Shown: in pieces, positions 22,848-27,264 of the stretch
Layout of the letters: every line of letters starts with the position of its first letter
How positions within the stretch are numbered: position 1 is the first letter of the stretch
NCBI RefSeq assembly: GCF_002835935.1
Contig: NZ_PJCF01000006.1
Coordinates: 1-64,000, forward strand
From: Paraglaciecola sp. MB-3u-78
GTDB lineage: Bacteria; Pseudomonadota; Gammaproteobacteria; Enterobacterales; Alteromonadaceae
Reading direction: 5' to 3'
Length of the DNA: 64,000 bases
The notes under the pieces: model-generated
Told to the model about the DNA's origin: nothing
Databases searched by the model: none
The model's input: only the letters and a program-made list of their open reading frames with translations
Program-made: the position numbers and the translations under genes

Positions 22848-23462
22848 TTATTCCTTGGGGTGATCTAAGAAACACTTCTGCTGCATTTTTAAGAACAACG
22901 TTCGTAGCCCCACACAATTAATCTTGCGAGTATGCTCAAGTACATATACCACCGACTCCAGAGTTGATAGACTATCTTGTCGAGTTGTATGTCTAATCTG
23001 GTATTGGTTTTCAGGTGGATGACTAAAGTGCCAGTTATTGCATAGTTTTAACCAAGGATTAAGGTGCCAAATTTTCAGGGCTTTGCGCCATGATGCATCA
23101 ATGAATAGCATATTGTGATTGACTGGGAAATAGCTTTGTTTTTGTTGTGGTGAGGAAATAGATTCAAGGGAGGTGCTGTGTTCATGAGGGTAAATCAAGG
23201 AATAATTTTGGGGCTGGTTAGCTACCCTTTCGGCTAGTTCTGCCCAGTCATCGAGTCTCTCACCTTGTAAAACAGTCACGTTTTTTAATCCCAGGGTTAA
23301 TAACTTGACGGTATTTTTTGCGTGTTTTGCTTCTTTAGGATGTTGTAAAATAATGATGTTGAAAGGTGTTGTGATGGGATTTACCCAAACACAGACACAT
23401 GTGCTTTGCGGGTAGCCACATTTTGCACATACTGGTCTTTTATTCGTTTTTAACGTTGTCAT
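22848..23462 (-). CDS. DTW-domain protein (tRNA-uridine aminocarboxypropyltransferase type)
   Basis: A 204-residue DTW-domain protein. The family (E. coli TapT/YfiP and relatives) transfers the 3-amino-3-carboxypropyl group of SAM to uridine in tRNA, giving acp3U. Visible features are the N-terminal zinc-type motif RPVCAKCGYPQSTCVC, the segment IILQHPKEAKHAKNT, and FIDASWRKALKI, where the name-giving DTW triad appears as DASW. RHTTRQDSLSTLESV follows. I prefer the ATG at 23462 over TTG 23471. The gene is next to a decayed locus but looks intact. Which tRNA position it modifies, and whether it is the TapT orthologue or a second paralogue, is open. Confidence 0.85.
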   Translation of the reverse strand: MTTLKTNKRPVCAKCGYPQSTCVCVWVNPITTPFNIIILQHPKEAKHAKNTVKLLTLGLKNVTVLQGERLDDWAELAERVANQPQNYSLIYPHEHSTSLESISSPQQKQSYFPVNHNMLFIDASWRKALKIWHLNPWLKLCNNWHFSHPPENQYQIRHTTRQDSLSTLESVVYVLEHTRKINCVGLRTLFLKMQQKCFLDHPKE

Positions 23463-23648
23463 ATTTTTCAAGTTTTTAAACTTACTATAACTTATGCTTG
23501 GTGTTTGTGATCAGGCTTGTTAAATTTGATAGATAAAGTCAAACCGACTGCCTCTAATATAAAAAATATAAAGCCAAATGGATGTATATGCTCATCGGAA
23601 ATTGTTTAATTAAATTAGCTAGTTATTTATTTACCTTGGGTGTTATTC

Positions 23649-25640
23649 ATGTCATTTGATAACAGCGTTGATTATATGCCAAACCAACCCTTTTCCAATG
23701 CCGGTATAGATCCATCAGACTCCCAGCATAAAATCTTTCAAAAACTTAAGTGGCAAGTTTTGATTGGCACATTTTTGTTGATCCTGATCACTGCCAATGC
23801 TGTGATTTGGAGTCAATCGCCAATATATCAAAGCCAAGCTATCTTACATTTTTCATATGCATCTCAGACTGAACAAGAGTTTTCTGAATTAGCACAAAGG
23901 CAAATTATCCTGCATCAGCAAAGGATGAAAAGCAACAATGTGCTTAGCCTTGTTGCAGAAGAGCTTGAACAAAGTCAGATGTTAATCATTAACGTACAAA
24001 CACTTTTTGATGCACTGGCAGCAGAAGTGAATTTAACTGGGCGTATTATTACTCTAAAAGCCAACGGTAGCGACCCACAAATACTTAAACCAATAATAGA
24101 TGCATGGATAAAAGTGTATCTGCAGTTATTTGCGTCTGAAACGCAAATAAACAACACTGATGATCTATTGGTTGCAGACCAGCAATTGCAGCTGCTGGAA
24201 TTAAAAATCAATGACCAAGAACAACAGTTAAAATTTTTTGCCAGTGAAAATAATATCACCTCGCTAGAAAGAGATGAAAATCGAGTCCTAAGTCAGACCA
24301 AAAACTTGGGTGCTAACCTTGACCAAGCGTTGGCCGAACAGGCACAAACACAAGCGTTGCTTGATAGTTTGGTTGAGTCCATTAATAATGGACAAGTCAT
24401 TATTAGACCAGCGGACAAGGCTCAAATTGATGCGACAAAGCTTAGCCTGCAAGAGGTTAATGTCAATTTGTCTGCTTTATCTGAAAAATATACGCAAGCC
24501 TATTTGGAGCGTGACCCAGCTATTGTGGCTCAACAGCAAAAATCTCAGCAACTTCATATTTTGCTTGAAGAACAAATACAGATTAGCCAAGCGGACTATT
24601 TACTCGATGTAAAACGCGAACTCAGTGCTGCTAAAAGTAAAGTGGAGCAGATGAATACCCAGCTAATTGAGCAAAACAAACTAGCACAAGTATTTAGCCA
24701 AAACCTTGAACAATATAAAAGACTAGACGACGAATTAAAGGCCCTGCAAACTCAAGCCCAAACTCTAAAAAATCAACAAGTAGCGCAAGAGGTATCGAAA
24801 CCTTTCGATGCTAAGATTTCTTTGCTTGAGCCTGCCTTTATTCCTGATTTTGCAATTGGACCCGACTACTCACTTAATAGCCTTATCAGTTTAATCGCGG
24901 CCGTCATTGTGGCCGTATTAGCTTTGTTGTTGTTTAGTTTTATCTTCAACCAGAAAGTATCAGCTACATCTACTCACTTTGTTGTGATACCTGGGCAAGC
25001 CGGAGCCAATAACTATTCAAACATTGGCCATGCTCAAAATGGCCAACTTCCAGCACCCGATCCTCGCCTATCATCAGAACCAGCTAAGTTGCCACCCGTC
25101 CCCCAAGCTATACGTTTATTAAGTATTGATGAATGCCAGTTGCTTTTTTCTGTTGCAAATAACCAAGGCAAGGCATTAATAGGCTTAGTATTAAGTGGTG
25201 TCAATATTGATGAATTATTAGTGATAGAGAAAGCGAATTTCAGTCAACAATATTTGTTTTTACAGATAGACAACCAATTTTCTCGCAGCATAAGTATTCA
25301 AAAGGAACTCGCTGAAGCTCTGCAAGTCATATTCAACAAGGTAACTGATGGACAAACAATTTGGTCAAATATGCAAAGCCATGAAGACTTTGTACAGCTG
25401 TTGGTCAATATAGGCCATGATGCTCAGATGGCCTTTCCTGAACAGATTTCCCTCGACGTATTAAGGCATACTTATTTAACGTATTTGGCTAGTCAAGGAG
25501 CTAGGCTCAATGATATAGAACAGGTTGCTGGATATACCTCGCCAAGTGACTTAGCACTTTATCGAAATGTTAACCAACAAGGCAAGTTACTGGATTTAGA
25601 GCAAATTCAAACACAATATGCTTTTGTTGTGACAGGCTGA
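23649..25640 (+). CDS. Wzz/GumC-like membrane protein fused to a degenerate tyrosine-recombinase-like domain
   Basis: A 663-residue protein. The first two thirds look like a polysaccharide co-polymerase: a first membrane helix (about 36-54), a Wzz-like region, a long periplasmic coiled coil (about 180-385, with YLERDPAIVAQQQ) and a second helix (about 412-433). After a Pro-rich linker the cytoplasmic end (about 487-655) reads as a tyrosine-recombinase catalytic domain. Evidence is LVLSGVNIDELLVIE where integrases have xGLRxSEL, SLDVLRHTYLTYLASQG where they have HxLRHTxATxLL, and QVAGYTSPSDLALYR where they have LGHxxxxTTxxYxH. The first catalytic Arg is Asn and both His are replaced; the second Arg and the Tyr remain. 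It occupies the place where BY-kinases are fused. Numbering counts from ATG 23649; a GTG at 23640 is possible. Confidence 0.8.
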   Translation: MSFDNSVDYMPNQPFSNAGIDPSDSQHKIFQKLKWQVLIGTFLLILITANAVIWSQSPIYQSQAILHFSYASQTEQEFSELAQRQIILHQQRMKSNNVLSLVAEELEQSQMLIINVQTLFDALAAEVNLTGRIITLKANGSDPQILKPIIDAWIKVYLQLFASETQINNTDDLLVADQQLQLLELKINDQEQQLKFFASENNITSLERDENRVLSQTKNLGANLDQALAEQAQTQALLDSLVESINNGQVIIRPADKAQIDATKLSLQEVNVNLSALSEKYTQAYLERDPAIVAQQQKSQQLHILLEEQIQISQADYLLDVKRELSAAKSKVEQMNTQLIEQNKLAQVFSQNLEQYKRLDDELKALQTQAQTLKNQQVAQEVSKPFDAKISLLEPAFIPDFAIGPDYSLNSLISLIAAVIVAVLALLLFSFIFNQKVSATSTHFVVIPGQAGANNYSNIGHAQNGQLPAPDPRLSSEPAKLPPVPQAIRLLSIDECQLLFSVANNQGKALIGLVLSGVNIDELLVIEKANFSQQYLFLQIDNQFSRSISIQKELAEALQVIFNKVTDGQTIWSNMQSHEDFVQLLVNIGHDAQMAFPEQISLDVLRHTYLTYLASQGARLNDIEQVAGYTSPSDLALYRNVNQQGKLLDLEQIQTQYAFVVTG

Positions 25641-25649
25641 TTTGTTGCC

Positions 25650-25994
25650 ATGTGTGGGCACCCTCAATACGCCAAAATTTGGCGCACAGTGCAGCTTATT
25701 CCTTTAGGTAAAGTGGCCAGTTATGGCCAAATTGCGGATCTGGCTGGGTTACCAAGTCGGGCAAGGTTAGTGGGTAAGTCACTTGGTTACGTGCCAAAAG
25801 ATATGGACGTACCTTGGCATAGAGTTTTGCGTTCTAATGGACAAATTGCCTTCCCCACAGGCTCTGAGCAATCACAAAAACAAACAGGTTTATTACAACA
25901 AGAAGACGTCGCTATTTTTAACAACAGAGTCAAGCTTAGCCTTTTTCAATGGCAACCTGATTTAGCAGAAATGCTGTGGAAATTAGAGTATTAG
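25650..25994 (+). CDS. Alkyltransferase-like protein (ATL)
   Basis: A 114-residue member of the MGMT DNA-binding family. It has the helix-turn-helix text GKVASYGQIADLAGLPSRARLVG and the active-site block PWHRVLRSNGQI, where Trp replaces the acceptor Cys of true O6-alkylguanine transferases. ATL proteins therefore do not remove alkyl groups; they bind O6-alkylguanine, flip it out and recruit nucleotide excision repair. The ATG at 25650 lies 9 bases past the Wzz-like gene, so the two are probably cotranscribed, although the stop-start spacing may reflect only gene packing. The C-terminal SLFQWQPD text is usual for the family. Confidence 0.93.
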   Translation: MCGHPQYAKIWRTVQLIPLGKVASYGQIADLAGLPSRARLVGKSLGYVPKDMDVPWHRVLRSNGQIAFPTGSEQSQKQTGLLQQEDVAIFNNRVKLSLFQWQPDLAEMLWKLEY

Positions 25995-26085: not shown

Positions 26086-27264
26086 GTGTTAAAAACCTTT
26101 GATATAGACGACGTTGAAGAAGGAATGTTCGTTGACTCTATAGCAAAACAACAAGGCAAATTTAAGATCACCAGTCGTGGTAGGGTCACCTCTTTTGCCG
26201 TTATAAAACAATTAAAACAGAAAGGGATTTTGGCTGTTGTGGTTGATATGAGCAAACAAATCAAGGCAGACGTTGTTGAACTAGAAGAACCTGCCCTCAT
26301 CCCTGAACTACCTGAAGAAGTGTCCTTTGAAGCAGAACTTGGAGTGGCGAGCAAACTTCACCTAAAAGGTAAACACTTACAAAAAACAATGTTAGAGAGT
26401 ATAAGTAAAAATTTACCCATCGACATTACCATCCCAGAAGCATTCACCAAAAATCTTGTATCCTCGATTGATCGCAATCCTAATGCCTTGATGTGCCTGA
26501 CAAAAATACGAGAAAAAGACACCTATCTTTTAGAACATTCGTTAAATGTGGCTATTTTGTTAGCCAACTTTGGTACTTATATAGACTTGGATGAAGAACA
26601 AATACAAGAATTGGCGCTGTCAGGTTTTCTTCATGACTTAGGGAAAATTAAAATTCCTGAAGAAATATTGCATAAACCTGGTTTTTTGACTGATCAAGAA
26701 ATGACGGTTATGAAAGATCACGTGTATTACGGCACCAAAGTACTCATTGAAATGGGGATTCCCAATTCAATTGTTAAAACAATAGGCCAACATCACGAGA
26801 GGCTCGATGGTTATAGTTATCCAGAAGGTTTGCGAGGTGATGAGATTACTCACTTTGGTCGAATGATTGCAATAGTTGATACTTATGATGCGATAACGGC
26901 CGACAGATGTTACAAAGTTGGGAGGTCGTCTAGGAAAGCACTACAAATTTTGTTGCAAGATGCGCCTGAAAAGTATGATGAAGTGTTAGTAACACAATTT
27001 GTGCAATGTATCGGAATTTTCCCCGCGGGCAGTTTAGTCAAATTAAACAACCAAAAAATTGCCATGGTGCTCAGGCAAAACCCAGTACATGCCACTAAAC
27101 CCGTTGTGAAAGTGTTTTATTCAGTTCGAGGCGGTCATTATTTGGAGCCCAAGGAATTGGACTTAGCTGCGGCTAGTAATGGCGTAAAAATTGTTGATGC
27201 TGTGATCGCAAGCGACTTAAAGCTCGATTTCAATAAGTACTTTAATGAATCAATCGTCGTCTAA
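26086..27264 (+). CDS. DUF3391 / HD-GYP-domain protein, probable cyclic-di-GMP phosphodiesterase
   Basis: A 392-residue cytoplasmic protein with an N-terminal DUF3391 region (about 1-110) and an HD-GYP domain (about 140-320). Metal-site residues are visible: H151, the HD pair at 183-184 in FLHDLGKIKIP, H212, and HH at 236-237. The signature reads HHERLDGYSYPEGL, so the Gly of GYP is Ser here; the following Tyr-Pro is kept. The family hydrolyses the second messenger cyclic di-GMP. The start is a GTG after a GAGAT site. The 92-base gap after the ATL gene leaves cotranscription possible. Next to a Wzz-like protein, a role in switching surface polysaccharide is an attractive inference only. Confidence 0.9.
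   Translation: MLKTFDIDDVEEGMFVDSIAKQQGKFKITSRGRVTSFAVIKQLKQKGILAVVVDMSKQIKADVVELEEPALIPELPEEVSFEAELGVASKLHLKGKHLQKTMLESISKNLPIDITIPEAFTKNLVSSIDRNPNALMCLTKIREKDTYLLEHSLNVAILLANFGTYIDLDEEQIQELALSGFLHDLGKIKIPEEILHKPGFLTDQEMTVMKDHVYYGTKVLIEMGIPNSIVKTIGQHHERLDGYSYPEGLRGDEITHFGRMIAIVDTYDAITADRCYKVGRSSRKALQILLQDAPEKYDEVLVTQFVQCIGIFPAGSLVKLNNQKIAMVLRQNPVHATKPVVKVFYSVRGGHYLEPKELDLAAASNGVKIVDAVIASDLKLDFNKYFNESIVV

What the first reader, a model, noticed from the sequence alone, without database searches (positions are those of the whole stretch)
23649..25640. Wzz/GumC-like co-polymerase fused to a degenerate tyrosine-recombinase domain
The sequence shows two membrane helices with a long periplasmic coiled coil, as in polysaccharide co-polymerases. 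The cytoplasmic end, where a BY-kinase would be, instead reads as a tyrosine recombinase: LVLSGVNIDELLVIE, SLDVLRHTYLTYLASQG, QVAGYTSPSDLALYR. Of the usual Arg-His-Arg-His-Tyr set only the second Arg and Tyr remain. This suggests a fold reused for binding or sensing rather than recombination. It sits beside an ATL repair gene and an HD-GYP gene. I know of no described function for this architecture.
Basis: partly seen in the sequence, partly recalled or inferred. Interest (0 to 1): 0.75.

Follow-up and report, generated by a model that had tools for sequence, protein, structure and literature searches.

The report
Sugar-polymer regulator wearing dead recombinase domain
A membrane protein that looks like those controlling the length of bacterial surface sugar chains carries, on its inner side, a worn-out relative of a DNA-cutting enzyme that has lost its chemistry and probably its grip on DNA, and was probably kept as a protein-to-protein control part.

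Summary
One unbroken ORF (23649-25640, 663 aa) joins a Wzz/Wzc-type polysaccharide co-polymerase (PCP) half (two membrane helices, long periplasmic helical part, proline-rich TM2 entry) to a C-terminal tyrosine-recombinase fold: 26 members against 15 own-genome integrases, hhalign E 1.8e-13 over 154 columns, eight decoys 0.17 or worse. The fusion is a conserved, purifying-selected family in 25 genomes of six families of one class, plus two named contigs; it is not a frameshift. The active site is gone; Arg-II and Tyr remain in 24 of 26 members, so neither is invariant. The domain is acidic in 26 of 26 (mean pI 4.9) while 15 own-genome integrases are basic (mean pI 9.7), which argues against DNA binding. 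The ATL/HD-GYP neighbours are incidental: the site exists without the gene. All 25 fusion genomes have an exosortase hit, against 117 of 369 genomes of the class draw (6 of 6 fusion genomes there, Fisher p 9e-4, uncorrected for genome size or kinship), mostly unlinked. Best reading: a PCP whose cytoplasmic kinase is replaced by a phosphorylation-free, non-DNA-binding pseudo-recombinase scaffold. Function is untested; structure prediction failed with the three sequences I could give it.

The parts
23649..25640 (+). CDS of the fusion protein, 663 aa (ATG; alternative GTG at 23640)
23751..23816 (+). TM1 (residues 35-56); W35 and W54 invariant in 18 relatives
   Evidence: hydropathy; alignment
23817..24860 (+). 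periplasmic helical/coiled-coil part (residues 57-404), Wzc/TIGR03007-like
24801..24866 (+). proline-rich segment before TM2 (residues 385-406, with LEPAFIPDFAIGPD; P405 invariant in 18)
   Evidence: PCP hallmark per PMC7809406 passages
24873..24953 (+). TM2 core (about residues 409-435)
24963..25112 (+). variable cytoplasmic linker (residues 439-488)
25113..25637 (+). degenerate tyrosine-recombinase catalytic-domain fold (residues 489-663)
25203..25205 (+). position of catalytic Arg-I: Asn519 here (R in 1 of 26 members)
25464..25466 (+). position of catalytic Arg-II: Arg606 (R in 24 of 26)
25533..25535 (+). position of catalytic His-III: Tyr629 (H in 0 of 26)
25560..25562 (+). position of the nucleophile Tyr: Tyr638 (Y in 24 of 26)
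25563..25637 (+). C-terminal tail; an aromatic/His-Pro pair like the Xer 'HP' tail is present in 21 of 26 members (Tyr-Ala, without Pro, in this one)
22848..23471 (-). neighbour: DTW-domain gene (not part of the function)
25650..25994 (+). neighbour: ATL-type alkyltransferase-like gene (incidental)
26086..27264 (+). neighbour: HD-GYP gene with DUF3391 (incidental)

Best explanation
It is an inner-membrane PCP-2-like chain-length/co-polymerase protein whose cytoplasmic bacterial-tyrosine-kinase module is replaced by a catalytically dead tyrosine-recombinase domain acting as a non-DNA-binding protein-protein module. Shown: the fusion, its conservation and purifying selection, loss of the active site, acidity, and co-occurrence with exosortases. 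Inferred: protomers oligomerise through TMs and periplasmic helices as PCPs do; the pseudo-recombinase domains meet underneath, possibly through the cyclic C-terminal-tail exchange that real recombinases use, and set or reset the oligomeric state or dock a cytoplasmic partner without phosphorylation, as the pseudokinase EcpK is proposed to do for EpsV. The client is most likely a polysaccharide of bacteria that carry the XrtA/PEP-CTERM (exosortase) system. The broad part (PCP with a non-catalytic, non-DNA-binding control domain) I put near 0.5; the tail-exchange detail near 0.15-0.2.
For: N half: TIGR03007 5.7e-8, Wzc structures 5e-4 with the 18-row profile, the own-genome PCP that lies beside the exosortase by hhalign 5.4e-8 over 367 columns, versus 7e-4, 3e-3 and 0.05 for three other own-genome PCPs (four of the six PF02706 hits compared). 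Proline-rich TM2 entry and two TMs. C half: hhalign 98%, 1.8e-13; XerA 5.9e-8 and XerD 0.005 in the PDB by profile. Active site: R-I 1/26, K 2/26, H-II 1/26, H-III 0/26. Net charge -1 to -12 in 26/26, against +2 to +13 in 15/15 own-genome integrases. dN/dS of the C domain 0.06-0.12 in six pairs, some with dS above 1. N and C halves co-diverge (r = 0.95 over all pairs of 26 members; family clade monophyletic against 15 integrases, support 0.77). Exosortase hit in 25/25 fusion genomes, against 117/369 in the class draw. In G163 the gene lies inside a region with Wzx-type, Wzy_C and acyltransferase genes, 21 kb from an exosortase. Tail [YHF]P in 21/26 against 18/284 other ORFs of the fetched stretches (the 26 are related, so not independent).
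Against: No member has a tested function. Polysaccharide genes beside it are confirmed by Pfam in one locus only (G163), and that region already holds another PCP-like ORF (530 aa, by eye, L095). The window protein does not reach the curated cut-off of PF02706 or TIGR03007. TM2 has no Gly in 13 of 26 members, this one included. Only 4 of 10 other members match PF00589 singly at E up to 0.1. No sigma-54 site better than shuffles upstream. The two AlphaFold runs gave pLDDT 39 and 38, so no surface could be examined. In this protein the tail Pro is absent.
Confidence: 0.5

Rival explanations
1. Membrane-tethered DNA-binding protein: the recombinase fold still binds DNA and acts as a one-component regulator or chromosome tether, like a membrane-bound version of the SPbeta repressor MrpR.
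For: MrpR is a dead tyrosine recombinase that became a DNA-binding repressor (PMC10516654 passages); the C domain is on the cytoplasmic side by topology. MrpR/YopR appears in the profile search only at chance level (E 0.56-0.61, below unrelated hits at 0.16).
Against: Domain acidic in 26 of 26, whereas MrpR has a positively charged groove; the N-terminal core-binding DNA clamp of recombinases is absent, a variable linker stands in its place; hairpin Lys and both His are lost in nearly all members.
Confidence: 0.1
2. The retained Tyr (24 of 26) is a phosphorylation target of a separate BY-kinase, so the domain is a phospho-acceptor that replaces the C-terminal Tyr cluster of Wzc.
For: Tyr and the following Arg are strongly conserved in the 18-row set while most of the active site is lost; the own genome has other PCP genes, some of kinase-bearing length (the kinase part judged by eye).
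Against: Tyr is Cys in 2 of 26; it lies in a structured position in recombinases (recalled); conservation could be packing only.
Confidence: 0.12
3. Not a co-polymerase: a PCP-derived inner-membrane coiled-coil protein with another envelope role, for example helping exosortase-dependent surface proteins.
For: No conserved polysaccharide neighbourhood among 23 loci clustered; several ordinary PCPs already present in the genome; exosortase co-occurrence without linkage.
Against: Whole PCP topology and proline-rich TM2 entry retained; G163 copy sits in a polysaccharide region.
Confidence: 0.2
4. Artefact: frameshift or assembly error joining two genes.
For: None found; one relative (G141/L006) has an internal stop.
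Against: Same one-frame fusion in 26 of 27 loci across six families, low dN/dS in both halves.
Confidence: 0.01

Closest known systems
PCP-2 polysaccharide co-polymerases / Wzc, and the XrtA-system chain-length determinant (TIGR03007)
   Same: Two TMs, long helical periplasmic part, proline-rich TM2 entry, detectable homology
   Different: No BY-kinase in cis; recombinase-fold domain instead; no conserved polysaccharide cluster; below curated cut-offs
EpsV-EcpK of Myxococcus xanthus (PMC12004946, abstract and outline seen)
   Same: PCP lacking a kinase and served by a non-catalytic relative of an enzyme as scaffold (proposed there, inferred here)
   Different: There a separate pseudokinase; here a fused pseudo-recombinase of unrelated fold
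Xer-type tyrosine recombinases (XerA, XerC, XerD)
   Same: Catalytic-domain fold by profile and an aromatic/His-Pro tail in 21 of 26
   Different: No core-binding domain, 4 of 6 catalytic positions lost, acidic, membrane-anchored
MrpR, SPbeta master repressor (PMC10516654, passages seen)
   Same: Recombinase fold that lost catalysis and was reused
   Different: MrpR has a positively charged groove and binds DNA; this domain is acidic and fused to a membrane protein

Membership tests
PCP (Wzz/Wzc) polysaccharide co-polymerases | Two TM helices flanking a long helical periplasmic domain | tested here: met
   Hydropathy of 6 of 26 members (a third weak segment in the C domain of some); alignment; helices by sequence and low-confidence model only
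PCP (Wzz/Wzc) polysaccharide co-polymerases | Proline-rich segment before TM2 | tested here: met
   LExPFxPxYPIGPNY consensus, P405 invariant in 18; hallmark per PMC7809406 passages
PCP (Wzz/Wzc) polysaccharide co-polymerases | Glycine-rich segment within TM2 | tested here: not met
   No Gly in the TM2 core of 13 of 26 members including this one; 1 to 4 Gly in the other 13
PCP (Wzz/Wzc) polysaccharide co-polymerases | Score over the curated PF02706 or TIGR03007 cut-off | tested here: not met
   TIGR03007 31.4 of 278.85 bits; no PF02706 hit for the window protein; best of 10 other members 25.2 of 25.5 bits, L041
PCP (Wzz/Wzc) polysaccharide co-polymerases | Gene next to Wzx/Wzy pathway genes | tested here: inconclusive
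   Confirmed by Pfam in G163. 23 loci were only clustered, chosen flanking ORFs of 12 of them looked at by eye (a glycosyltransferase-like ORF beside L059)
PCP (Wzz/Wzc) polysaccharide co-polymerases | Controls chain length or polymer output | not testable with these tools
   Needs a mutant
Tyrosine recombinases | Catalytic-domain fold by homology | tested here: met
   hhalign 1.8e-13, eight decoys 0.17 or worse; PF00589 27.9 bits over 27.1 but 25.3 in the protein scan. Not shown by a structure model
Tyrosine recombinases | Catalytic R-K-H-R-H-Y set | tested here: not met
   R 1/26, K 2/26, H 1/26, R 24/26, H 0/26, Y 24/26
Tyrosine recombinases | N-terminal core-binding DNA clamp and basic DNA face | tested here: not met
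   50-residue variable linker instead; net charge negative in 26/26
XrtA/PEP-CTERM system component | Phyletic match with exosortase | tested here: met
   25/25 fusion genomes, 23/25 over the XrtA cut-off; 6/6 against 111/363 in the class draw, p 9e-4; one-way only, since most exosortase genomes lack the fusion; confounded by size and kinship
XrtA/PEP-CTERM system component | Location in the XrtA cluster or sigma-54/PrsR-type promoter | tested here: not met
   Near an exosortase only in G163, 21 kb; no sigma-54 site better than shuffles in 26 upstream regions

The most novel reading that the evidence does not exclude
A previously undescribed class of polysaccharide co-polymerase in exosortase-bearing Gammaproteobacteria, in which a dead recombinase domain, stripped of DNA binding, became the cytoplasmic ring-forming or docking switch. 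This would be a recombinase fold reused as a membrane-protein oligomerisation clamp through its ancestral cyclic tail exchange.
Probability: 0.35. Interest if true: 0.75.

Novelty: new variant of a known kind. Interest (0 to 1): 0.62.

Why it matters
Kinase-driven assembly and disassembly is the standard account of PCP-2 control. A conserved family that puts a dead recombinase in the kinase's place would show that an entirely different fold can do the cytoplasmic job, and would be a case of a recombinase fold reused with, it appears, no DNA at all. The exosortase co-occurrence gives a concrete, testable client system.

Tried and rejected
ATL/HD-GYP functional link: rejected after DTW-ATL sites without the gene were found. 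Sigma-54 promoter link to PEP-CTERM genes: tested in 26 upstream regions, no region below the 5% level against its shuffles (lowest 7%). Mobile-element origin: no relative in plasmids at E 1e-5 or phage records at E 1e-3, and none confirmed among 31 pattern matches in viral contigs. Spread outside the class: a phylum draw of 398 genomes gave three hits, all of the same class; how many of the 398 lie outside the class was not shown. In the profile searches at most three candidates per genome were scored, so misses are possible. Literature: four searches showed no paper describing a PCP-recombinase fusion; one search listed 10 of 1,034 papers and one search listed 10 of 26. Dropped rows: G141/L006 (internal stop) was left out of all alignments; ten further genomes match over the N half only and were not counted as fusions; alignments A1-A3 hold 18 sequences, the later family set 26.

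Full report
What is there. The window holds one unbroken 663-codon gene at 23649-25640 on the + strand. The genome is probably a Paraglaciecola: the nearest named record, 85% identical in the C domain, is labelled Paraglaciecola arctica, which makes the class Gammaproteobacteria. The genome is 6.48 Mb and the protein search finds one copy.

The N half is of polysaccharide co-polymerase (PCP) type. TIGR03007 (XrtA-system chain-length determinant) matches at 5.7e-8, though far below its cut-off. A profile of 18 relatives finds Wzc structures at 5e-4. Of four own-genome PCPs compared (six PF02706 hits exist) it is closest to the one lying beside the exosortase gene (hhalign 5.4e-8, against 7e-4, 3e-3 and 0.05). 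Two strong hydrophobic segments and a proline-rich stretch entering TM2, with P405 invariant in 18 members, fit the PCP plan described for WzzB (PMC7809406, passages seen). The glycine-rich TM2 feature named there is missing: no Gly in 13 of 26 members.

The C half is a tyrosine-recombinase catalytic-domain fold. PF00589 scores 25.3 bits in the protein scan and 27.9 bits, over the 27.1 cut-off, in the genome scan. Taken singly, 4 of 10 other members match it at E up to 0.1 and none passes the cut-off. The 18-row C-domain profile finds XerA at 5.9e-8, an integrase at 9.3e-6, a XerC-like recombinase at 8.6e-5 and XerD at 0.005 in the PDB. In its own genome that profile finds two integrases next after itself (6.8e-4 and 0.006) and two non-significant hits. 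The strongest test is profile against profile: 26 C domains against 15 own-genome integrases, aligned separately, give 98% probability and 1.8e-13 over 154 columns. Eight column-shuffled decoys gave 0.17 to 0.98, and the eight most distant members alone gave 4e-13.

It is a family, not an accident. In the window's family 27 of 196 genomes have a match, 17 of them over both halves; the order draw gave 8 of 394 (five already seen, three new in one other family), the class draw 6 of 369 (five new, in four further families), and the phylum draw 3 of 398, all of the same class. With the two named contigs that is 27 loci, of which 26 are open throughout; G141/L006 has an internal TAA. N and C halves diverge together (r = 0.95 over all pairs of 26 members), and the 26 C domains form one clade apart from 15 integrases (support 0.77). 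The C domain is under purifying selection (dN/dS 0.06-0.12 in six pairs, N half 0.03-0.12; dS exceeds 1 in some pairs).

The enzyme is dead and the domain is acidic. Over 26 members the six catalytic positions read: Arg-I 1/26, Lys 2/26, His-II 1/26, Arg-II 24/26, His-III 0/26, Tyr 24/26. The 15 integrases have Arg-I, Lys, Arg-II and His-III in all, His-II in 14, and Tyr in 13 at the aligned column. The C domain carries a net charge of -1 to -12 in all 26 (mean pI 4.9), against +2 to +13 in the 15 integrases (mean pI 9.7). The DNA-clamping core-binding domain is absent. DNA binding is therefore unlikely. This sets it apart from MrpR, the dead recombinase that became a DNA-binding repressor with a positively charged groove (PMC10516654, passages seen).

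Neighbourhood. Next to this gene lie a DTW gene, an ATL gene and an HD-GYP gene. Among 23 stretches clustered, ATL recurs in 11, DTW in 10 and HD-GYP in 10, all within the window's family. Of 10 fusion-negative genomes probed with the ATL gene, nine have it, and four of these show DTW directly next to ATL with nothing between (G089, G067, G014, G024). The neighbours are thus an arrangement found with or without the fusion, and tell nothing about its work. I looked by eye at chosen flanking ORFs in 12 of the 23 stretches and ran Pfam on one (L050). There, in G163, the gene lies in a polysaccharide region with a Wzx-type flippase, a Wzy_C protein and acyltransferases, 21 kb from an exosortase. 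That region also holds another PCP-like ORF of 530 aa (by eye), so the fusion would not be its only PCP.

Co-occurrence. Because the N half leans to the exosortase-associated PCP, I asked which genomes have an exosortase (TIGR03109). All 17 fusion genomes of the family draw have a hit, as do 133 of the other 179. All 8 fusion genomes outside the family have one. In the class draw 117 of 369 have one, including all 6 fusion genomes (Fisher p = 9e-4, or 1.4e-3 with the curated cut-off; family draw 8e-3 and 4e-4). Two of the 25 (G163, G802) stay below the XrtA cut-off. The relation is one-way: most exosortase genomes lack the fusion. Fusion genomes are also large and some are close kin, so these p values overstate the case. 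Apart from G163 the hits are not near each other. No sigma-54 promoter better than shuffles was seen in 26 upstream regions.

How it probably works. PCP-2 proteins work by changing oligomeric state under control of a cytoplasmic tyrosine kinase, and in Myxococcus a dead kinase, EcpK, is proposed to do this as a scaffold without phosphorylation (PMC12004946, abstract and outline seen). Here a dead recombinase domain sits where the kinase would be. Recombinases form rings: in XerH the C-terminal helix enters the neighbouring subunit in a cyclic swap (PMC5241119, passages seen). The fusion family keeps a Xer-like tail ending in an aromatic or His followed by Pro in 21 of 26 members, against 18 of 284 other ORFs (family members are related, so this is no independent count), although this protein itself has Tyr-Ala there. 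My reading is that the domain is a reversible clamp or docking platform beneath the PCP ring. The PCP-like plan and the loss of catalysis are supported by sequence, the loss of DNA binding by charge; the clamp and the exosortase-linked client are inference. A rival worth testing is that the retained Tyr is a phosphorylation target of a separate kinase.

Limits. The structure tool was given only three close sequences and returned pLDDT 39 and 38. No experiment on any member is known to me; four literature searches listed nothing on such a fusion, but only part of two of those listings was seen.

Noticed in passing
G000:C2:92875-95305, C2:226369-228799, C16:836-3266, C78:125441-127871: Four copies with identical scores of a cassette of three consecutive tyrosine-recombinase genes, resembling 'recombinase in trio' elements (name recalled, from no call); further recombinase genes or pieces lie close together at C18 and C34.
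   Followed up: no
L094 (G000:C34:1-9000): A PF02706-matching gene that reads as two short pieces (213 and 106 aa ORFs) a little downstream of several tyrosine-recombinase ORFs; looks like a disrupted polysaccharide locus.
   Followed up: partly
L089:3587-5323 (G000:C45, 579 aa): A second weak integrase-like protein (PF00589 E 0.006) in a 579-aa frame beside ORFs that look like flagellar flgM/flgN by eye; a different architecture from the fusion.
   Followed up: partly
L006 (G141:C1): The only relative of the fusion with an internal stop (TAA), possibly a decaying copy; left as it is.
   Followed up: no
L044-L046 (G161, G054, G117): In three same-genus genomes the fusion gene has no DTW, ATL or HD-GYP relative in the 18 kb taken, so it sits elsewhere than the DTW-ATL junction; the gene has moved or been regained within the genus.
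   Followed up: partly
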